The notes beneath the pieces are model-generated. The model had not been told where the DNA came from, searched no databases, and saw nothing but the letters and a program-made list of their open reading frames with translations. Both the position numbers and the translations under genes were made by a program. From Holtermannia corniformis (Eukaryota; Basidiomycota; Tremellomycetes; Holtermanniales), in NCBI GenBank assembly GCA_001599935.1, contig BCIJ01000006.1, positions 266,403 to 330,402 on the forward strand: DNA of 64,000 nucleotides. The letters are read 5' to 3'. Of the stretch, positions 7,260 to 63,886 are shown in pieces. The first letter of the stretch is position 1, and the number at the start of each line of letters is the position of its first letter.

Positions 7260-8435
7260 TCATCGGTCGTTGCCAAAGTCGCGCTCCATCTTGAGCAGAT
7301 CATCCAGATCTTGCTCGGCAGGTGTGCGCGGACGCCTGACAGCATCCCCTGGCGAGCGAGGTGATAGCGCCGTGTCGAGCTGGGGAAGGTGCAGATTGTC
7401 ATCCAGTGGTGGGATTACGAGCATACTGGGTCGATGCGGTGATGGCGCCGCCCAGGGATTCGGTGGAGAACTAGAGCTTCGTCGCGGCGGCGTTGGATCC
7501 TGTTGAGGCGACCCAGTCTCCGGTATGTATGATGCGTCGGGTGGTCGGGTCGCCTCGGAGTCATCGGCTGAATCCTCGGTGGCGCCACCAAGGACTTTAA
7601 TTGTCCGCCTGAGTGCGTCGCGCTCCTCACGAGCCTCCCGCGCCTCTTCCTCCTTCTCGGCCACCTTCTTGCGCTCATCCGCGACCATACGATTCGCCTC
7701 CTCGAAGAGGGCTTGACTGAGCCCTTCGAGCTCTCCCTCGAGGGACGCCTTGCTCCGTTTAAGCTCCCCCAGTTCGGCTGACATGCTCGCCAACGACTGC
7801 TGAGCTTTGGCATAGTCTTGCCGCAGTAGCACCAGTGCGTGATTGCTAGATGCCGTCGGGGCCGTTGGCGAAGGCAGTGTTGAATATGAGGATGAACGCG
7901 TCAACGCTGCACCCGAAGCGGCAGTCGCTTGCGTTGGCGAGCGCAAAGGCGGTGATGTAAGAGAGTTCATATCCGCCTTTGGCGACGCTGGTGCAGATGG
8001 GCCTGCGATGGCGTTGGGTGCCGGCGAGTCCTTGAAGCGATTCCAGAACCCAAAGCCCTTGGACTCCCTCGACGGTGCTTGTACGCTTGCGGGACGACCG
8101 GGGACGCCCGTCGAGGTACTAGCAGCCGGCGAGATGTCGCTGCTGCCTCGTGCGTGCCCTAGAGCACTATCGGCGAGCGGTGACTTGGCAGGCAATTTCG
8201 AGCTGAGAGCGTTGAGGCCCAGTCCGGACGGAGTGATAGGTGAGCGTTTGCCGAGCAAGCCCGAGAAGCTGCCTTGATCGCCACGCCGGAATTGCTCCTC
8301 GAGCATTTCACTGTTGGCTTCGGCGAGCGCTAAATTGGACTTGGCAATCTTGAGTGACGCGAGTAAGTCTTGCTGAGAGTGTGCGAGTTCAGCGTTCGTC
8401 CTGGCCTGGTGGGTGTCAGCGGCGTGACTGAGCAT
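7260..8435 (-). CDS. Sec2-type Rab guanine nucleotide exchange factor (start uncertain)
   Basis: Likely the GEF that activates the exocytic Rab Sec4/Rab8 on secretory vesicles. The diagnostic part is the coiled-coil Sec2 domain with SQALFEEANRMVADERKK, close to the conserved Sec2/Rabin LFEEAN-MVADAR motif. It is flanked by long heptad-rich helices (about 100 residues). Before it lies a Ser/Pro/Ala-rich disordered stretch; after it a Pro/Ser-rich tail ends LLKMERDFGNDR. The frame is open from 8660, but a branch-site-plus-acceptor pattern near 8406 suggests an upstream intron. The true N-terminus may therefore lie further up, for example at an ATG at 9184 (MSKLPRASPIAHRLNEAIGK). The target GTPase, a SEC4 homologue, is at 14715-16068. 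Confidence 0.75.
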   Translation of the reverse strand: MLSHAADTHQARTNAELAHSQQDLLASLKIAKSNLALAEANSEMLEEQFRRGDQGSFSGLLGKRSPITPSGLGLNALSSKLPAKSPLADSALGHARGSSDISPAASTSTGVPGRPASVQAPSRESKGFGFWNRFKDSPAPNAIAGPSAPASPKADMNSLTSPPLRSPTQATAASGAALTRSSSYSTLPSPTAPTASSNHALVLLRQDYAKAQQSLASMSAELGELKRSKASLEGELEGLSQALFEEANRMVADERKKVAEKEEEAREAREERDALRRTIKVLGGATEDSADDSEATRPPDASYIPETGSPQQDPTPPRRSSSSPPNPWAAPSPHRPSMLVIPPLDDNLHLPQLDTALSPRSPGDAVRRPRTPAEQDLDDLLKMERDFGNDR

Positions 8436-9682
8436 GGTGATTGAGCCAGTGCTATGGCGTAGTTGACAGGGACGAGTTCTTGGCCTGATGCCGCCGTAAC
8501 TCAGACTAGTATTGTGCAGGAAGCAGATGACGTCCAGGCACTCAAAACAACCTGAAGACTCGGCCCAGCTTGCAGTGACCCTCTGCGCTTTACCGCAAAT
8601 GCCAATACGTTTGGTGGCAAGTACAGACATGCAACACAACTGTGCACCCGCCACCATCATGGAGAGAACACTGACATCGGAAGTTGCAGAGTATAGTAGA
8701 GATGTGGACAGAGATCTGGAACGTCAGCGAGGCGACAGCCGTCAGCTAGTGGCCGATGTCTCCGCCTGGTCTCTGTAGACCACTGCCGACCTTTGTCCGA
8801 GACATGTGCCTATACACCAAGCAAGATGTAACGATCATGATTGGGTATGCCACTGTCCTCCGACTTCAGCAAACGGCAGAGCTAGACTCGGCTCGGCCCT
8901 CGGCTGCCGCACGAGAACTCGTCTTTGGAAGGTCTGGCACTGTATGCGCTGCTTACAGGTGACCGGTATCCATCGAAGCGTGCGATCGCGTCTGAGCGCT
9001 AGTGATCACTGACCTGCACAAGGGTGCACGATCGGTTGCCGGCCTTTTCAAAGGACTTGGACTGCCACTGTAGCTGCCACATGAGGCATGAAACGCTAGC
9101 GCGCGAAAAAGCTACGCACTCGAGCTTGCCGATGGCCTCGTTGAGGCGATGGGCGATGGGCGACGCTCTCGGTAGCTTTGACATGGTACGATCAGAACCT
9201 GATACAGCGCTACTGGTCCACCGCTGGGGACAGTAACCCCTTCGCGTCGTCTCCACGGGCTCGCGTCAGCAGCTGATGAGGCGACCTTGAACCGCCTTGC
9301 TAGGCCGCTGACCCACTTATAGCTGCATTCCGTGAACCGTGCAGAGAAGGTACGGTTGATTACTAGCAACGACCGGCAGCCTCACAGCCGACGATGACGT
9401 AGAGTACCGATCGCTTCACACATGCAATGGTGAATTCAGAGAACAGCTGTCGCAGAGCCGGGTGCCTAGAGGCGTACAGCTGGAAAAGAGCATCGGCCGC
9501 TTGATGAGCGGCTTGCAGCCCATAAAAATCAACTGTAGCTTGGGCAGCTCTTGCCAGTCGTGCGCCGGATGCTAGCCACTGCCTAGAAATCCAAGCACGC
9601 GCAACGGATCGAGTCGAGTGCGACGTCGATTATCAGACGTCCACGCCGATCGAGTAAGACCCTGCAATGCGCATGGAATCGT
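8436..9682. other. long intergenic or unresolved 5' exons of the Sec2-like gene
   Basis: No complete gene is visible. On the minus strand, 9184 downwards reads MSKLPRASPIAHRLNEAIGK followed by more open sequence and a GTCAGT donor near 9010. This could be a first exon of the Sec2-like gene. The rest has no recognisable coding signal. Confidence 0.3.
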
Positions 9683-23573: not shown

Positions 23574-24490
23574 CTATAGCCCAACCGCTGCGGCCAGACA
23601 CACTCCGACCATCCCCAGCGCAGCACCCCATGCTATGCCCATGGCCCTCGCCGCACTGCCCGAAGGCGATGCCGATGCCGTTGCCGAGCTTGACGACGGC
23701 ACTACAGTCGTCGAGACGACGGTCGACATGGAGGATGAGATGACGGTCGAGATGGCGGTAGAGATGACCGAGCTGGAGCCGTTGCTTGAAGCTGAGGACG
23801 AGGCCGGGACGGTAACGGTGACGGGTGGGAGGGAGGTTGGGGAGACGGTTGCGGATGCGCATTGAGCGATGTAGCCTTTGGTGACGAGGTTAGCGTACGC
23901 CAGGTGGTAGGGGTGCTAGGCAGATGTACCATCCATGAGTGCTTGGTATGATGCGATCGTGTTGTTGGTCGCTTGTGTAAACGTCAGTGCGCATTCGACG
24001 CACGAGAGCTGTGTGGATCAGCTACATTCACAGCTGTTTCACGAGCGCAGTACTCACATAAGTCTGCTGGACCGACTCGGTACAGAAACACGTCGTGTTG
24101 AGCGAGCTCGCGACGTTGCAATCCTACATATGAACGGCGTCAGCTGACTGCTGCGCACGGCGCAAAGGACACAAGGCATACTGACCACAAGCAGCGATGA
24201 GAGCGTCGTACACGACGGACAGTTTTCAGCGTCTGCGATGCGCGTTTGCGATGCGGCGGCTGCAGAGACGGAGCCCGAGGCGGAAGTAGCTGAGATGGAG
24301 GTGTTGGATGTTGTTGAGCTTGGGTTGAGCGACGCTGAGTTGGAGGAGGATGCAGATGCGGATGAGGATTGTGCTGGCGGGACGTCAGCAGTCAGCTCGT
24401 TGTTGCAGCAGCTCATCGAGTTGTACGGGACTGACCGGCCACCATGCTCAATCCGAACGAAAGCACGGTCAAAGGGGTAAACAGCCGCAT
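23574..24490 (-). CDS. Secreted eight-Cys (CFEM-like) GPI-type surface protein A
   Basis: The N-terminus MRLFTPLTVLSFGLSMVAG is a signal peptide. A Ser/Ala/Thr-rich stretch follows, then a compact eight-cysteine domain with spacing C-x2-C-x9-C-x9-C-x-C-x10-C-x2-C-x25-C (CPSC ... NTTCFC ... LSCVEC ... YIAQC). A long Ser/Thr/Val-rich stalk comes next. The C-terminus is hydrophobic (GIAWGAALGMVGVCLAAAVGL) after a small-residue site, as in GPI-anchored wall proteins. Five exons are inferred; introns fall just before Cys3 and just before Cys6. The same spacing logic and nearly the same intron positions recur in the genes at 60558-61542 and 62487-63886. The spacing resembles CFEM, but the second half differs. 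Confidence 0.75.
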
Positions 24491-33139: not shown

Positions 33140-33984
33140 ATGAAGTATTTCCTTCTCTCTCTGGGTGCTGCGTTGGCTGCTACCACTCTCGTGTCTGCCC
33201 AGAGCGGGTGAGTTGCCGATGATAATCAGATATCAGCCAGCTGACAACCTGCATTAGCATCTCGCAGTGTGTCTTGACCTGCTCGCAGCAGTCTGCTCTT
33301 ACCGCTGGCTGCTCGTCCTTGTAGGTCCAGCTCTCTCGTGCAGTCACTTCTCTGATTCTGCGGCAGCGCCGATCTGCAGTGTGTCTGCACTTCTGCTGCA
33401 TTCCAATCTGCTGCCCAACAATGCCTGGCGTCGTTCGTATCTTTGTCCCACGCCGCCCGGCACAGCTCACTGACTGACCGTGTAGCAACTGTACCGCCGA
33501 TGAGCAAGCGTCTGCTCTTGCCTTGCAGCAGGCATCTTGCGGTTCTCGTGCGTGTCTCGTTGGCCCTGAGCTAAATTGGTGGCTGACGTTTTTATGCATA
33601 GTCACGGTCACATCGGGTACGGTTTCGACCGTGATCTCCTCAGCCGTGTTCTCACAGGCGTCCGAACTGTCGACCAGCGTTGACACTGCCGCGCTCGGCG
33701 TAAGTGCTGTGGCTGTCCGTCATCGTACAATGCTGACTTGACAGTCGTCGATTGCGGCTTCGGCTTCGATGACTTCGTCTCTATCATCTGCAGTCGCTTC
33801 ATCGACTGCAAGTTCGGCATCGGCTTCGAGCTCTGCACCAGCTGCTGCTTCGAGCTCATCAGCGTCTGCTGCGGCTTCAGCATCGGCATCGCCCTCGGGC
33901 GCCGCCAGCGTCAACAAGGCCGACTTCATGCGCGGTCTCGGAGCGCTCGGAGCCGTCATCGTTGGGGCCGCTGCTGGCCTCTAA
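33140..33984 (+). CDS. CFEM-domain GPI-type cell surface protein
   Basis: The N-terminus MKYFLLSLGAALAATTLVSA is a signal peptide. After a short intron the CFEM domain has eight cysteines with spacing C-x3-C-x9-C-x7-C-x-C-x11-C-x4-C-x15-C, including CSSFADLQCVC, where the Asp is the usual heme-iron ligand position. Then come a Ser/Thr/Ala-rich stalk and a C-terminal hydrophobic tail (ALGAVIVGAAAGL) after a small-residue site, as for a GPI anchor. Six exons join in phase; the stop is at 33982-33984. CFEM proteins bind heme or act at host or wall interfaces. A 21-bp palindrome sits just upstream. Confidence 0.85.
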
Positions 33985-54681: not shown

Positions 54682-54687
54682 GAAACC

Positions 54688-54768
54688 GACGATGAAGAGA
54701 TTCGAACTCTCGAGTACAAAGTACATTGCCTTAGCAAGGCAACCCGATAACCACTACGGGACACCGTC
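54688..54768 (-). tRNA. tRNA-Ser (anticodon GCU)
   Basis: The 81-nt minus-strand sequence folds as a class II tRNA. The 7-bp acceptor stem is GACGGTG/CATCGTC. The D arm lies around GTAGTGGTTATC (A box). The anticodon stem is TTGCC/GGCAA with loop TTGCTAA, giving anticodon GCT. A long variable arm and a T arm GAGAGTTCGAATCTC (B box GTTCGAAT) follow. No intron. It decodes AGC/AGU serine codons. Confidence 0.93.
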
Positions 54769-57136: not shown

Positions 57137-60100
57137 ATGTCGCTCGTTCTCCCTGCTTCGGCCGTACAGCTCCCGCACGCTCCGCAACGCAACCCTTCGA
57201 CATGCTCTTCAGCGTCAACAGACACGACTGCTTCGTCGTCGTCATCGGTCGAGGCTGCTCCGATGCGCCCACCACCCATCGAGACGCGCACGGCAGCGAC
57301 GTCGGAGGCTCAGCTGCCATCGCCCCAAGACTTGCAGCGGCAGGAGGACGAAATCAGGACATATGGTCAGGCAGGGACGTCGGGTCGCCGCCGAGGCAGT
57401 GCTGGCAAGAACTCGAGTGCGAGCCCGACAACTCCGAGGGCGAGGCGGTTCCCGTTACCGGCCGCGACTCAGCCGCCAGCGTATCTCCTGCCAGCAGAGG
57501 TCCAGCCGCAGCGCCAGAACCACACAGAATGGCAGGCTGAAGAAAGCTCTGGCGGTCGAACCCCGCTCCGGATCAACGTCCACCCTTCATCATCGACGAG
57601 GGTGGACGGACCCCGATCGGCAGACAGTGATGGGCCGTATATTGCAAGAGACCATGTCTCCTCTTCACCTGTCAGCCGTAAGGGTAGAGCTCGTAGCAGC
57701 GAAGACAGGCTACTGCGCTCTCCTCCTTCGTCAGAGGTCCCGATCCCGCGCGAGCGTGAACAGAGCGGACCTCGGAAACCATCAATCAATGATTTCATCA
57801 TTGGCGAGGTACTCGGCCGTGGCAGCTACAGTACGGTACGTCTCTACATCAGCCCTGTACATGCGCTCATCGTGTCGAGGTCGTGCACGCTACCAGCAAC
57901 TTGACGTCGTCCCCCTCCAACCTCTCGCCGCCATCCAACGTGCTCGGCTCCTCTCCCTCCGCAACCTCGATCATGTCCTCCTCGTCCCGGCTCACAACGT
58001 CGACTCCAGTCTTCGCCATCAAGATCATCAACCAAGCGCACCTGATTGCCGAACGCAAAGTCAAGTACGCGCACATTGAGCGCGACGCGCTCGTCCGCCT
58101 CTCACCGCGCCCCGCGCACGCCAGAGCCCAGTCCAACGGATCCGTCAGACCGGGCGCGAAACGCAAATCGACGGCGAGTCTCGGCAGTGTCGTTGCGCAG
58201 GTTCAAGAACACGTGCGCAGAGGCAGTCATGGTGGTTTGCAGGCGAATCGACTGTCGGTCGCGACCATCGGCAGTGATTCCTCGGCGGGAACGGTCCAGC
58301 GCCATCGTCAGTCGCAGGTCGACTCGCCGAGCGCGATTGCAGAACAGGGGCCAGAGGAGCAGATGGAGTCGTTGTCGCTCACGGGAGCGGTCGAACAGGT
58401 CGAGGCGACCGAGCGGAAAGCGAGAGAGCGGGCCTCGTTGCCTGTACCGGGACCGTCGGCGTACCAATCGCCTGTGCCGTCGCCGAAAGGCCGAGCTAGT
58501 CATCCTGGTGTCGTCAGGCTACACCAGACGTTTGCAGACAAGACGAGTCTATGTCAGTGGCGCGCAAAAGGAGGTAGCAAAGACGCTAACGTCTCACAGA
58601 TTTTGTACTGGATCTTGCTAGCAATGGCGAGCTCTTGTCGCAGATCAAGCGGGTGAGCAGAGGTCGAATGGTCGAAGCCCAGACTCATCCAGTTGCAGAA
58701 CGGTTCGCTCGACTTCTTCTCGGCTCGTTACTACGCTGCGCAGTTGATCGACACGGTCGAATTCATGCACGAGCGGGGCGTCGTCCATCGCGATCTCAAG
58801 CCGGAGAAGTGAGTGTACGCTGGTAGCGCAACGAATACATTGCTGATCATCCCAGCATCCTGCTTGACGACGAGATGCGGATCAAGGTCACAGATTTCGG
58901 GAGTGCAAAGTTGCTGGGCAACGACGTCGAGTCGCACTGTGAGTGGCGTGCCGCTGCTCGTGGTGGTGTTGATGGATGACCACAGCCGACGGCAAGAAGC
59001 GCTCGTTTGTTGGCACAGCCGAGTATGTCAGTCCCGAGGTCTTGCGCAACGACCCGGCCAATGCCCCGTGAGTCTCCATTCGTAGCGCAACCGTCGCATA
59101 CTCATGACCCCAGTGCCGACATCTGGGCTTTCGGTTGCGTCATGTTCCAGTTGATCGCCGGGCGGCCGCCGTTCCGCGGAGCGACGGATTACCTGACGTT
59201 TCAAAAGATCTTGAAGGCTGAGATGGAGTGGCCGGAAGGATTCGATGAGCGCGCGAGAGACTTGATCGAGCTCATCTTGGTGCGTGACTTGGTATGCACT
59301 CGGTTTTAGCTGACGTGAGCAGAAACTTGACCCCGCCGAACGCCCGACTGCAACCGAAATCAAGTTGCATCCGTACTTTGAGACGGTCGACTTCAGCCAG
59401 CTTTGGACGATCCCTGCGCCGGTCATCTCGACCGGGTTGGTAGCGCCTACTGCACCGAATGGCTCTGCGCGCGTCAACAGCGACATGTGGGACGTCTTTG
59501 ACGACGAGTCTGAGACGGAGATGGACGTACCCGACGCCGTGGACGCCGTGCAAGCCGTCGACGGTCAACCGCACCCAACAAACGAAGCCTACTTTGCCGA
59601 CCAGAGCCTCGAAGCGCCCCGGCCGCGATGGCTTGAAGAGGATGGCTTGCGCGCAGGCGACATCAAGGGTCGCAAGGGCCGGAACTCGGACGGCAGCGGC
59701 AAGACCGATTCAAGTACCATGGCGCGCGTTCAACTCGATGGCTTGCTGAAGAATATCGGTGCCCGTCCCGTCTCGGCGGCCGAGTCGAATCGATCCCGGA
59801 CCGTATCGACGCCGATCGAGGGCAAAGCTCCTAGCGGCGGCAAGTCTGCCAGCGTCAGCAGTACCAAGCAATGGTGTGTTCGGCATGGGAATGGTAGGTG
59901 TGGCGCTGATAGCTCCAGGTCATCGTTACTCCTTCGCCAAGAACACATTCTCTACTCGTCGCCGATCCACTTGCGCTCGGCTTCGCTGTTCCCCATGGCG
60001 CCTAAGCGCCGGACTCTGATCTTGACCGACTTTCCACGCTTGATCTGCGTAAAGGAAGATACGTCCGGCAACGAGCATCACAAAATCAAGGCCGAGTGTG

Positions 60101-60348
60101 TCTTTCTCTCGCGTCGGTCGGCAGCCAGCCTCGAAGCGCGTGGCGATAGCGGCGGTGCCATCAACCTCGTCACGGGGATTGTCGAAAAGGGCACCAAGAC
60201 GTTGGTTGTGCAGACCGTTAGTCGTCAAAGCCCGTAGGCGTGACGCTCTAGCTCACCTTTGCAGGTCGCACGCGATCACACGTTCATCGCAGACAGTCCA
60301 GAGCTCCGGCAGCACTGGGCGCGAGAACTCAACAAGCTGCTCAACTAG
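57137..60348 (+). CDS. PDK1-type AGC-master kinase (Pkh1/Ksg1 homologue)
   Basis: The 3-phosphoinositide-dependent kinase 1 homologue that phosphorylates the activation loop of AGC kinases. A 215-residue Ser/Pro-rich N-terminus precedes the kinase: [30 protein letters not shown] (catalytic Lys), [43 protein letters not shown] and [23 protein letters not shown] domain closes the protein ([18 protein letters not shown] then [20 protein letters not shown]). The N-lobe carries two insertions: about 35 residues between beta-2 and the catalytic Lys, and about 130 low-complexity residues before [11 protein letters not shown]. Eight or so introns; the stop is TAG at 60346-60348. Confidence 0.92.
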
Positions 60349-60557: not shown

Positions 60558-61542
60558 CTAGCGGGCAAGAGCGCCTGCAGCAACGCCGATCATGGCAGCG
60601 GCCAACGTCCAAGGGGCCGAACCGCCGGCGACAAGCTTGCTGGCAGCGCCGGAAGGCGAGACGGACGCGGCGGCGCTCGAGGCTGCGCCATCAACGGCAC
60701 TGGATGCCGACGAAGCAGCGTTGCCAGAGGCCGAAGCTGAGCGGGAAGCGGCCGCGCCCGAGGCCGAGACGACAGCATTAGAAGCTGATGCGATGGCGTC
60801 CGAGGCCGACGCGGCGGCACCAGTGACAGTGATCAACGAGTCGGTGCCCGTAGCGGCAGCAGCTTCGCCAGAAGCTGTGGCGGACCTGAAAAGGGGTCAG
60901 CTACTTGGCTGATCTTCAAAGGTGTGAATCTAAAAGGGAGCAGGTAAAGGGGCAAGGGGGAGATCAAAGCCGTGCGAAAACTCACCCCGAAGCTGCCCCT
61001 AACGAGACAGTGACGACTGGCGTTTGGCCTGCGGCTTGACACGCGCTCTCGAGCTGGCTGATGGTCATTTGCAGAGCAGAGACAGACGACGCGGGGACGT
61101 CTGGCACGTTGAGGATGACGCAGTTGAAGCAGCCGACGAATCTGAATAGGGTCAGGCCCTATTGCTAAGCATGTAGAGGTGTCCGACTGACTGGTTGAAC
61201 GTGTCAGACTCGCAGACGGTCAAGCACGTCGCTTGGTCGTTGGTCGAGCACGCACTACGGATAAGAGCATCAGTAGGTATCGAAGCAAAATGTCAGCGAC
61301 ATACTTGTAGATGGTCAGTGCGCTCGCGCAAGTGTCTTGGCACTGGGCCGGCAACTGGTCCGCGGTGAACGACTGGCGAGCAGCGAGATTGACAAAGTGG
61401 GGCGAAGTGACGAGGGAGCGAACGTGCGGTAACGATGGCGAGGCCGCTGAGCAGATTGGTCAATAAACGACAGGTCTATCAACCGACGCGACTGACCTGC
61501 GCCGAGGGCGAGCAAGACGGGAACGATGGCGGCAGCGAGCAT
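60558..61542 (-). CDS. Secreted eight-Cys (CFEM-like) GPI-type surface protein B
   Basis: The signal peptide MLAAAIVPVLLALGA is interrupted by an intron. The mature domain has eight cysteines spaced C-x3-C-x9-C-x7-C-x3-C-x10-C-x2-C-x26-C (CQDTC ... YNAC ... ATCLTVC ... VGCFNC ... ESAC). A long Ala/Ser-rich stalk follows, and then a hydrophobic tail (APWTLAAAMIGVAAGALAR) typical of a GPI signal. Five exons join in phase. Introns fall two codons before Cys3 and a few codons before Cys6. The spacing is identical to that of gene C, which lies head-to-head. Confidence 0.75.
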
Positions 61543-62486
61543 TATTAGAGAGAGTGATAAGAGACGAGTGGGTATGAAGACGAGGGTGAGAGGGAAAGGA
61601 GCATCGGCTCGCTGGTTTTGGGTTGGCGGCTCCGGGTCCGTTAGCACTTCGGCCAGACGCGAATGCCGTGGTCACGCGTGTCTGGGCGGTTCCTTTGAAA
61701 CGTGGGTCTGATACGTAAGCTGTACCCGATTGGGTAATCTTATCGGCACAGACTCCGGTCAGGGGTCAGCATCAGTTTGTCAACATGAGCAGGGCAGCGT
61801 TGCGACAGCTACGCAGGTGAGTGTACTGAGTGAGCTTGCACCTCTTACTGTATNCCCGCTGCGGCACCTCGTCGCACTGACCTGGCAGCTGCACCGCCGG
61901 TTCTACTCCCGCTCCGACCGCCCCCAAGTCGTCATCCCGACTTTATGCATGCCCAGAGAGGCAAGTGGGCGACGCGGGGCGCTCGTACTGCTTGATTAGA
62001 TCAAGCTTTGCAGGTTGATTGAGGGCGGCGGACGACAATTGACCGAGTTGCCAAGAGGACGACGGCTAGAACAATGGTCACCGAAAGTGAGAGGCGGTCG
62101 TTAGCGTCGTTGAGAACGAGGGTCGGCGACCCAGTACACCCGGCATGGATGCACTGCCGATCTCTTCCGCGCCTTGTTCGCTTCCCGCCCGTGCTTTCGC
62201 GTTTCAGGCGATACATCACAATCCCTCTGGCCAGCTTCCGCGCTCTCGTACTGGCGGATACGGTCACGGTAGCTAGCTTGGCGTGTAGCAAGTGCAGACT
62301 GGATAGCATCGCGCTGGTCGACACTGCCTCGCTTGCAGCAGAGGCACGCGGCGCTCGAGCACCGGTTCTTCAGCCCCGAGATCGGCAGCCGACGCTTCGG
62401 ACCGAGTCAAAAGGGTTGGACGAGTCCGATTCTATTCTCAATCCCTCCAAAGGTGTGAGATCAAGCAACGGTGGAACTAAGACAGT
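61543..62486. other. shared divergent promoter of surface genes B and C
   Basis: 944 bases between two divergently transcribed paralogues. No supported gene. One ambiguous base at 61854. Confidence 0.5.
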
Positions 62487-63886
62487 ATGCTCTCTCGTCT
62501 GCTCGTGCTTGCCTGTGCGCTCGCAAGTTTCGCGTCAGGTCCGTGAGGCCTCTCGAAACCCTCCATCTCATAGCGGTCTGATGCTTTTCCTCAGCCACTC
62601 CTTTTCCCGACCCAACTCCTGCTCCATTGCCACCTTCGCACGATGCAACCCACCGCGCCGGCGTGATCAGGGATAACTTGCCGCCTCTGCTAAAGCGTCA
62701 GAGTGTCTCGGGCAGCTTCACCAGCACGGCTGGCACAGGCTCGACGACATCCTTGGCGGACGATATCCCTAGTACTTGTCAGACGACGTGCGCGTACACC
62801 GTCACGGTCATAGAGTGAGTTCGCCTCGTCCATGTGTCGCCTACTGACCTCTGCAGCGCTTGCAACAACAACCAAACAAACGCCTGCCTGGGCGTCTGCA
62901 CCTCGACAAACGTCAACAGCATCATTGTCTGCGTCAACTGCGTGTACGAAAACTCTCCGAACACGTCGTACCAAGACTGGCAAAGCCTCTACTCGTCCAT
63001 CTCGGTCATTGAAAACGCATGCAACACTGCCGGTCGGTCGGTCTCGCCGACAGAGCAGTGGGCGCAGTGGACGCCCGCGCAGTCGTAAGTCGTGACCTTG
63101 TGATTGCCGGGTGGCGGCTGACGTCCTGTACACAGTTCGACGTCGTCTGTGGATGTCTCGACTACCAGCACATCCAGTGCTTCGGTCGCGCCATCGCACT
63201 CATCCGCGCCAGCGAAATCAACACCGATCGGTGCCATCGTCGGCGGCGCAGTCGGCGGCGTCGTTGCCCTAGCCCTGCTTGGTCTTGGCATTTTTTGCCT
63301 GCGTCGACGCAAGAAGAACAGCACAGGCATGTCACCTTATCCCGCGTCTGGATCAGGCGGGTACACCGACAGCCCGCAGATGGCCTCCATCGCTCCTTCA
63401 GGCGTCAAGCGCGGCTACTCTGGCGGACCCAACGACAAGTTTGAAGTTGACCCACAAGGGGTGGACACGATCTCTCCGTATGTGGCAACCTCTGCAGCAA
63501 CGACGCTCGATCACGGTCATGGCGCGCTCTCGCCCCATCCAGCCGAGGCCGCTGCGTATGCCGCTGCAGCCGCCTATACCTCACCGTCATCATCCTCCGC
63601 TGGAGGCCAGTTTGATCGCCCGGTCCCACCTCTGCCTACCGACGCACCGCTGCAGAACCCGCACGCACTCCCGCCAGGCGCAGGTGCCGCCACGAGCAAA
63701 TCTCAGCTCGCAGCCGAGGACCGGCGTGCGGCAACCCTACTCGGCGAGGAGCACCCGGATGAAAACGTCGAGTTCAGGCGCCATGTAGATGCCGGGCCCA
63801 GCGTCAGTGACGGTTCGACTTCGGCGGATAACAGGCGGACGGTGATCGACCTTCCGCCAGAGTACCCGGGCGTTCGGCCCGCCTGA
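62487..63886 (+). CDS. Eight-Cys (CFEM-like) transmembrane surface protein C, sensor-like
   Basis: The signal peptide is MLSRLLVLACALASFASG. A short Pro/Ser-rich part precedes the eight-Cys domain with spacing C-x3-C-x9-C-x7-C-x3-C-x10-C-x2-C-x26-C (CQTTC ... NACLGVC ... VCVNC ... ENAC), exactly as in gene B. A Ser/Thr-rich stalk leads to one membrane helix (IGAIVGGAVGGVVALALLGL then GIFCL) with a positive stop-transfer RRRKKN. The cytosolic tail is about 180 residues, ending DLPPEYPGVRPA with a PPEY (PPxY) motif. The layout resembles fungal wall-stress sensors of the WSC/Mid2 kind. Four exons, stop TGA at 63884-63886. Confidence 0.8.

What the first reader, a model, noticed from the sequence alone, without database searches (positions are those of the whole stretch)
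60558..63886. Candidate new CFEM-like eight-cysteine family
Three proteins (23574-24490, 60558-61542, 62487-63886) share a secreted eight-Cys domain. Two have identical spacing, C-x3-C-x9-C-x7-C-x3-C-x10-C-x2-C-x26-C. The third has C-x2-C-x9-C-x9-C-x-C-x10-C-x2-C-x25-C. The true CFEM protein at 33140 is C-x3-C-x9-C-x7-C-x-C-x11-C-x4-C-x15-C. The first four cysteines therefore match CFEM, while the second half is re-spaced (a CxxC pair and a long last loop). Introns sit close to Cys3 and Cys6 in more than one copy. The CFEM heme-ligand Asp is not at its usual place. This looks like a CFEM-derived or parallel family.
Basis: partly seen in the sequence, partly recalled or inferred. Interest (0 to 1): 0.8.

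Follow-up and report, generated by a model that had tools for sequence, protein, structure and literature searches.

The report
Paired fungal eight-cysteine surface proteins
A fungal chromosome carries two neighbouring genes for related cell-surface proteins with an eight-cysteine outer domain that matches no named Pfam family and looks like, but is not shown to be, a re-spaced relative of the fungal CFEM domain.

Summary
The cysteine spacings and gene models hold at base level. Two of the three proteins, B (61542-60558 minus) and C (62487-63886 plus), are true paralogues: 39% identical over 72 aa, all eight cysteines in register, the same intron 4 nt before Cys3, divergent across 944 bp. B ends in a GPI-signal-like tail (by eye); C has a transmembrane segment and a long cytoplasmic tail. 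The third, A (24490-23574 minus), is tied to them only by cysteine spacing (45/20000 random placements do as well). None of the three passes a Pfam or NCBIfam cut-off; the CFEM protein at 33140 does. The CFEM link is weak: a B+C profile picks that protein as best non-self hit, above the reversed-sequence maximum, but profile-profile probability is 2-19% and residue similarity is not significant against cysteine-preserving shuffles. Three defining CFEM spacings fail in B and C. No further copy or outside homologue was found, by searches of limited reach. AlphaFold models were too poor to test the fold. Verdict: a real small family without a Pfam name, probably a variant of a known kind of fungal surface protein; CFEM descent possible, unproven.

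The parts
60558..61542 (-). Gene B, 5 exons (61542-61497, 61446-61305, 61254-61192, 61141-60986, 60885-60558), 244 aa: signal peptide, short pro-region ending AARQS, eight-Cys domain (61345-61030), Ser/Ala-rich stalk, short hydrophobic GPI-signal-like tail
   Evidence: Splicing and translation; domain span. Signal peptide and tail judged by eye; the tail did not pass the hydropathy threshold used.
62487..63886 (+). Gene C, 4 exons (62487-62538, 62595-62814, 62857-63084, 63136-63886), 416 aa: signal peptide, pro-region ending KRQS, eight-Cys domain (62774-63031), Ser/Thr stalk, transmembrane segment aa 195-224, cytoplasmic tail with PPEY near its end
   Evidence: Splicing; domain; hydropathy; paralogue of B
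61543..62486 (.). 944-bp stretch between the divergent genes B and C (one ambiguous base at 61854); presumed shared promoter
   Evidence: Coordinates; WGATAR count 1 against 1.01 expected from single-base shuffles, so no sign of GATA-type iron control
23574..24490 (-). Gene A, 5 exons (24490-24436, 24373-24186, 24123-24058, 24008-23930, 23875-23574), 229 aa: signal peptide, Ser-rich spacer, eight-Cys domain (24224-23850), Ser/Thr stalk, hydrophobic GPI-signal-like tail aa 205-229
   Evidence: Splicing, domain span, hydropathy; linked to B/C only by Cys spacing
33140..33984 (+). Gene D, the true CFEM protein (comparison), 198 aa, six exons (33140-33207, 33258-33320, 33367-33432, 33486-33547, 33602-33699, 33745-33984)
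   Evidence: Splicing; Pfam CFEM 41.5 bits, E 1.4e-10 for its first 87 aa; PDB Csa2 4y7s E 0.014

Best explanation
B and C are a duplicated, divergently transcribed pair of fungal cell-surface proteins built on one eight-cysteine domain (four disulfides inferred) that has no Pfam name. Both enter the secretory pathway, and C at least is probably trimmed at a Kex2-type KR site (inferred). B is then held at the outer face by a GPI anchor (inferred) and C crosses the membrane once. The most likely working is a surface binding and sensing pair: the domain binds a wall or environmental ligand, B as the tethered form and C as the form that can pass the state inward through its tail, much as CFEM hemophores pair with a membrane partner from a shared promoter, but without the CFEM aspartate chemistry in C and A. 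The domain is probably a re-spaced relative of the CFEM-type helical fold, with A as a more distant cousin that keeps the CFEM CxC. Shown: gene structures, spacing, B-C paralogy, transmembrane segment by hydropathy. Inferred: anchor, disulfides, fold, ligand, signalling, common promoter.
For: B-C homology: 40% over query residues 2-81, E 3.5e-6, in the genome search, 28 invariant columns of 72, 0/1000 cysteine-preserving shuffles, same intron position and phase before Cys3, a phase-1 intron at the signal-peptide end and RQS after the pro-region in both. Stalk and transmembrane segment of C. No named family. CFEM tie: D is the best non-self hit of the B+C profile above null; spacing coincidence; A has CFEM CxC plus the B/C second half, and the CFEM gene at C13 (L009) has an intron 3 nt before Cys3 as A has (read). 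Analogy: PGA7 and CSA1 share promoters with membrane partners FRP1 and FRP2, and FRE N-termini are predicted to keep a CFEM fold with fewer cysteines and, in six of twelve, Asn for the Asp (PMC9635878, passages).
Against: No significant residue-level CFEM similarity beyond cysteines; profile-profile probability 2-19%; the L009+Csa2 profile does not find B or C above null; D lacks the intron before Cys3. Fold models too poor (pLDDT 42.5 and 52.1), and the one fold search gave no CFEM among 12 matches, best E 1.1. No expression, ligand or anchor data. B's tail is only moderately hydrophobic.
Confidence: 0.4

Rival explanations
1. B/C (and perhaps A) are a separate eight-cysteine domain with no common descent from CFEM; small secreted four-disulfide domains arise repeatedly, and the resemblance is convergence in spacing.
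For: Cysteine-preserving shuffles: A, B and C against D, L009 and Csa2, nine pairs, never below 117/1000 (L009 with a misread tail); hhalign probability 2% for B,C against CFEM; three CFEM spacing rules fail (consensus).
Against: True CFEM pairs are also weak by the same test (D-Csa2 8/1000, L009-Csa2 101/1000, D-L009 413/1000), so absence of signal says little; the B+C profile does pick D.
Confidence: 0.35
2. The pair are working heme-binding proteins (hemophores) of CFEM type in a divergent form, B using Asp69.
For: B fits the consensus stretch Cx1-3[x/T]Dx2-5C (CSTNDQATC) and has Asp at Cys3+4 like Csa2; the divergent pair recalls PGA7-FRP1.
Against: C has no Asp and A has Asn there; changing this Asp essentially abolished hemin-column binding of Rbt5 and Pga7 (PMC4183699, passages); no GATA-site excess upstream; C is a single-pass protein, not a ferric reductase.
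Confidence: 0.1
3. Not exclusive of the others: the proteins are ordinary members of a lineage-wide fungal family of eight-cysteine surface proteins that simply lacks a Pfam entry; the novelty is only missing annotation.
For: From recall, no call: mushroom-forming fungi encode many secreted proteins with CxC plus CxxC spacing resembling A. No control shows how many fungi the protein database holds, so the absence of homologues is weak evidence of rarity.
Against: Not tested: no fungal proteome collection could be searched.
Confidence: 0.4
4. The gene models are wrong at one or more joins and the identical spacing is an artefact.
For: No transcript data; A's fourth intron has a weak donor (GTACAT) and an AAAG acceptor.
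Against: B and C give the same spacing with different intron sets. A splice-aware scan with the C-only profile returns B with the same joins (146 against a null maximum of 38), and with the B-only profile returns C with the same join (152 against 29).
Confidence: 0.05

Closest known systems
CFEM domain (Pfam PF05730; Csa2, Rbt5, Pga7)
   Same: Eight cysteines, secreted, Ser/Thr/Ala stalk; Cys1-x3-Cys2-x9-Cys3-x7-Cys4 in B and C identical to the CFEM protein D; Cys5-Cys6 of about 10; A keeps CxC
   Different: No Pfam score; Cys4-x3-Cys5 in B and C; Cys6-x2-Cys7 instead of x3-4; Cys7-x25/26-Cys8 instead of x15-16; heme Asp absent in A and C
Ferric reductase (FRE) N-terminal domains with predicted CFEM fold (PMC9635878, passages)
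   Same: Precedent for a CFEM fold hidden behind changed cysteines and an Asp-to-Asn change, as at A's Asn90
   Different: Ten of twelve FRE domains there keep six CFEM cysteines and two keep four, on multi-pass reductases; B and C have eight and are GPI-like or single-pass
Wsc/Mid2-type cell-wall stress sensors (recalled)
   Same: C: signal peptide, Cys domain, Ser/Thr stalk, one transmembrane segment, basic run and cytoplasmic tail
   Different: No WSC domain matched in Pfam

Membership tests
CFEM (PF05730) | Score above the Pfam gathering cut-off | tested here: not met
   A, B, C: no CFEM hit listed at E up to 10; first 87 aa of D 41.5 bits against cut-off 22
CFEM (PF05730) | Eight cysteines in one extracellular domain | tested here: met
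CFEM (PF05730) | Cys1-[A/G]x2-Cys2 (consensus quoted in PMC4530338) | tested here: not met
   B and C have x3 but Gln in place of Ala/Gly; A has x2. D itself has Val there
CFEM (PF05730) | Cys2-x8-12-Cys3 and Cys5-x9-14-Cys6 | tested here: met
   x9 and x10 in A, B and C
CFEM (PF05730) | Asp between Cys3 and Cys4 (heme iron ligand) | tested here: inconclusive
   B fits (CSTNDQATC), A has Asn at Cys4-3, C has neither (compare)
CFEM (PF05730) | Cys4-x-Cys5 | tested here: not met
   B and C x3; A, with x1, does meet it
CFEM (PF05730) | Cys6-x3-4-Cys7 and Cys7-x15-16-Cys8 | tested here: not met
   x2 and x25/x26 in all three
CFEM (PF05730) | Helical-basket fold (PMC9684206, passages) | tested here: inconclusive
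   AF2 pLDDT 42.5 and 52.1 on three-row alignments; the exon-3 model is all-helical but unreliable; no Csa2 match
CFEM (PF05730) | Ferric heme binding | not testable with these tools
   Needs purified protein
Hydrophobin | Two CC doublets in the eight-Cys pattern (recalled) | tested here: not met
   No CC pair in the domains of A, B or C

The most novel reading that the evidence does not exclude
A third branch of the CFEM superfold: A, with CFEM's Cys4-x-Cys5, an Asn in the Asp place and the new CxxC plus long last loop, is a surviving intermediate between CFEM and the fully re-spaced B/C type, and B/C form a capture-and-sense pair that has given up heme coordination.
Probability: 0.25. Interest if true: 0.6.

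Novelty: new variant of a known kind. Interest (0 to 1): 0.35.

Why it matters
If the domain is CFEM-derived, it extends the superfold beyond heme and reductase use and shows a stepwise re-spacing of its disulfides in one genome; it would also give an entry point to name an eight-cysteine surface-protein family that Pfam lacks. If it is convergent, it is one more small secreted fungal family.

Tried and rejected
Homologue search in 5.8 billion proteins with B (16 candidates, E up to 1), C cut to 202 aa (1 candidate, E up to 10) and A (7 candidates, E up to 10): none scored. No positive control with a known fungal protein was run, so these negatives may reflect the database. PDB by sequence with the B domain and the A1 profile: one match each, E 2.4 and 0.94, neither credible. 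Own genome by tblastn-type search with the domains of B, C, A, D and L009: besides these genes themselves and B and C finding each other, two weak places, C30:232358 (E 0.029; by eye no eight-Cys frame, the other strand reads like a hydrolase, no search run) and C15:489137 (E 0.013; no profile scored above the null level), both set aside as chance. The tool's first look passed only 2-4 candidates in those five searches, so these are lower bounds.

Splice-aware profile scan (A,B,C profile) of L009 and 20 C6 flank stretches (187 kb without N): no further member, best 14.7 against a reversed-sequence maximum of 15.0. Neighbouring stretches overlapped by only 50 bases, so a gene across a join could be missed. 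Single-sequence profiles gave mixed results, told in the text. GATA sites: none in excess. GPI-tail query from D: apart from D one place at E 1.6. Single-frame spacing regex C-x10-C-x2-C-x24..27-C: 1 real (gene C) and 1 in reversed sequence over 251 kb, so rarity alone is no proof. Ten neighbouring open frames against Pfam: five weak or real matches in four frames, one (Sec2p) over its cut-off, none iron-related. Papers: seven counted searches; in the listed titles and abstract starts I saw none that describes this spacing; only open-licence papers are held. The organism was not identified; that it is a basidiomycete is untested.

Idea dropped: kinship with the top fold match, a plant chitin-binding protein (E 1.1; a 2S-albumin-type fold from recall), because the model is unreliable.

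Full report
What is there. The window is G000:C6:266403-330402 of a 20.2-Mb, 55-contig genome. It is fungal: it has intron-bearing CFEM genes, and CFEM is stated to be unique to fungi (PMC4530338, passages); its ribosomal protein L3 matches best PDB entries (8oo0, 7olc, 7r81) that I recall as filamentous fungi, the output naming no organism. The phylum was not tested. Hand splicing gives open frames with GT-AG introns: A 229 aa, B 244 aa, C 416 aa, D 198 aa. C has no intron between Cys5 and Cys6 where B has one, and both give x10, which supports B's join.

B and C are paralogues. Searching the whole genome with the B domain returns C at 40% identity, E 3.5e-6, across an intron; the reverse search finds B at only E 0.058. 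Aligned, 28 of 72 columns are identical. Shuffling the non-cysteine residues while keeping the cysteines in place never reached the B-C score (0 of 1000, z 7.2). Both have an intron in phase 2, 4 nt before the Cys3 codon, a phase-1 intron in an Ala codon at the end of the signal peptide, and RQS after a pro-region, preceded by Lys in C (KR, a Kex2-type site from recall) and Ala in B. They are transcribed away from each other across 944 bp. C has a transmembrane segment at 195-224 followed by a basic run and a tail of 192 residues with PPEY near its end. B has a Ser/Ala stalk and a short hydrophobic end that looks like a GPI signal by eye; it did not pass the threshold, while the ends of A and D did. 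No signal-peptide or GPI predictor was run.

A is less certain. From Cys2 to Cys7, five cysteines of A coincide exactly with B and only Cys4 is moved, by two. Beyond cysteines there is no similarity to B or C (483/1000 and 570/1000; hhalign E 0.27 over 17 columns), and the B+C profile did not list A among its seven best of 112 hits. A also has a phase-1 signal-peptide intron and an intron 3 nt before Cys3.

Known families. Pfam-A passed no cut-off for A, B or C. The weak hits were SSB_1 for A (residues 127-190, E 0.15, 12.7 bits against 27), NDUF_B7 for B (residues 39-78, overlapping the start of the domain, E 0.023, 14.8 against 26; NDUFB7 is a Cx9C protein from recall, and B has Cys2-x9-Cys3) and TM_ErbB1 for C (the transmembrane segment, E 0.0006, 19.9 against 27.1). 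The first 87 aa of D give CFEM at 41.5 bits against 22. NCBIfam gave nothing for the A and C domains and two hits far below cut-off for B (with the first residues of segment A mistyped).

Is it CFEM? The consensus quoted in PMC4530338 (passages) is PxC[A/G]x2Cx8-12Cx1-3[x/T]Dx2-5CxCx9-14Cx3-4Cx15-16C. B and C fail the CxC, Cx3-4C and Cx15-16C parts and the Ala/Gly; A fails Cys1-Cys2, Cx3-4C and Cx15-16C and has Asn90 where the Asp would be, at Cys4-3. B has Asp69 at Cys3+4, the offset of Csa2's Asp from Cys3. Splice-aware profile scans over the window, L009 and 20 flank stretches (28 pieces, 112 hits a run) gave, against the maximum in reversed sequence: B+C profile, D 31.5, next real 16.0, null 21.0; B alone, C 152, D 40, another place 30, null 29; A alone, D 39, C 38, an unrelated flank place 36, null 35; C alone, B 146, A 25 (part), D 24, null 38; CFEM profile of D, L009 and Csa2, B 23.3, C 18.3, null 17.7; CFEM profile without D, D 65.0 but B 11.0, C not among the seven listed, null 16.5. 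Cysteine-preserving shuffles found no significant tie of A, B or C to any of three CFEM proteins (lowest B-Csa2, 117/1000); true CFEM pairs gave 8/1000 (D-Csa2), 101/1000 (L009-Csa2) and 413/1000 (D-L009), the L009 rows with a misread tail, so the test is weak. hhalign gave probability 2% for B,C and 19% for A,B,C, and E 0.019 over 22 columns for A alone. Cysteine positions of B, C and D agree within one residue at 6 of 8 (151 and 169 of 20000), A and D at 6 of 8 (535 of 20000), A and L009 at only 5 (5737 of 20000), against 8 of 8 for the three CFEM pairs. The CFEM gene L009 has an intron 3 nt before Cys3, as A has; D does not. Together this leans towards distant kinship but does not show it.

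Fold. AlphaFold on gene C with its in-frame 42-nt intron read through gave mean pLDDT 42.5; on exon 3 alone (Cys3-Cys8) 52.1 with three helices. Foldseek of the second model against PDB gave 12 matches, best E 1.1 to a plant chitin-binding protein; no CFEM. These decide nothing.

Spread. No fourth member in 187 kb of flanking C6 sequence or by genome search, whose first look passed 2-4 candidates. CFEM proper shows at least two genes, D and L009. The protein database gave no homologue for any of the three, but no positive control shows how many fungi it holds.

How it may work. In Candida, the CFEM genes PGA7 and CSA1 share promoter regions with FRP1 and FRP2, and FRE N-termini are predicted to keep a CFEM fold although the sequence has drifted and the iron-binding Asp is Asn in six of twelve (PMC9635878, passages). 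Changing that Asp in Rbt5 and Pga7 essentially abolished hemin-column binding (PMC4183699, passages). By analogy, B and C look like a tethered and a membrane-spanning form of one binding domain, expressed together; without the Asp in C and A, heme is unlikely to be the common ligand. A wall component or small hydrophobic ligand is my guess. Anchor, fold, ligand and signalling are inferred.

Verdict. A real paralogous pair with a domain that Pfam does not name, a plausible third relative, and a weak link to CFEM. Interest moderate-low, because nothing here separates a re-spaced CFEM branch from an ordinary unannotated fungal surface family.

Noticed in passing
G000:C6 from 330403, directly after window end 64000 (L015:103 to L016:3122): About 13 kb read N immediately after the window, so the region beyond gene C is unknown here.
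   Followed up: no
window 42980 and 61854: Single ambiguous bases; the second lies in the B/C intergenic stretch.
   Followed up: no
window 59314-60237 (+): Open frame with a PH_3 match (E 3.4e-5, 24.2 bits against a cut-off of 25), possibly the end of a PDK1-like kinase (my guess), tail to tail with gene B.
   Followed up: no
window 54687-54768 (-): tRNA-Ser (GCT).
   Followed up: no
window 7263-8723 (-): Open frame with a Sec2p GEF domain above the Pfam cut-off (36.7 bits against 28.5).
   Followed up: no
A aa 199-204, B aa 212-217, D aa 168-173: The C-terminal tails of A, B and the CFEM protein D share SPSG[AS]A before the hydrophobic end (SPSGAAS in B and D; sequences), perhaps a GPI-attachment consensus of this fungus; a query with D's tail found apart from D only one place at E 1.6.
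   Followed up: partly
L009, G000:C13 about 422490-422780: A second CFEM gene with x11 between Cys2 and Cys3 and an intron 3 nt before Cys3 as in gene A.
   Followed up: partly
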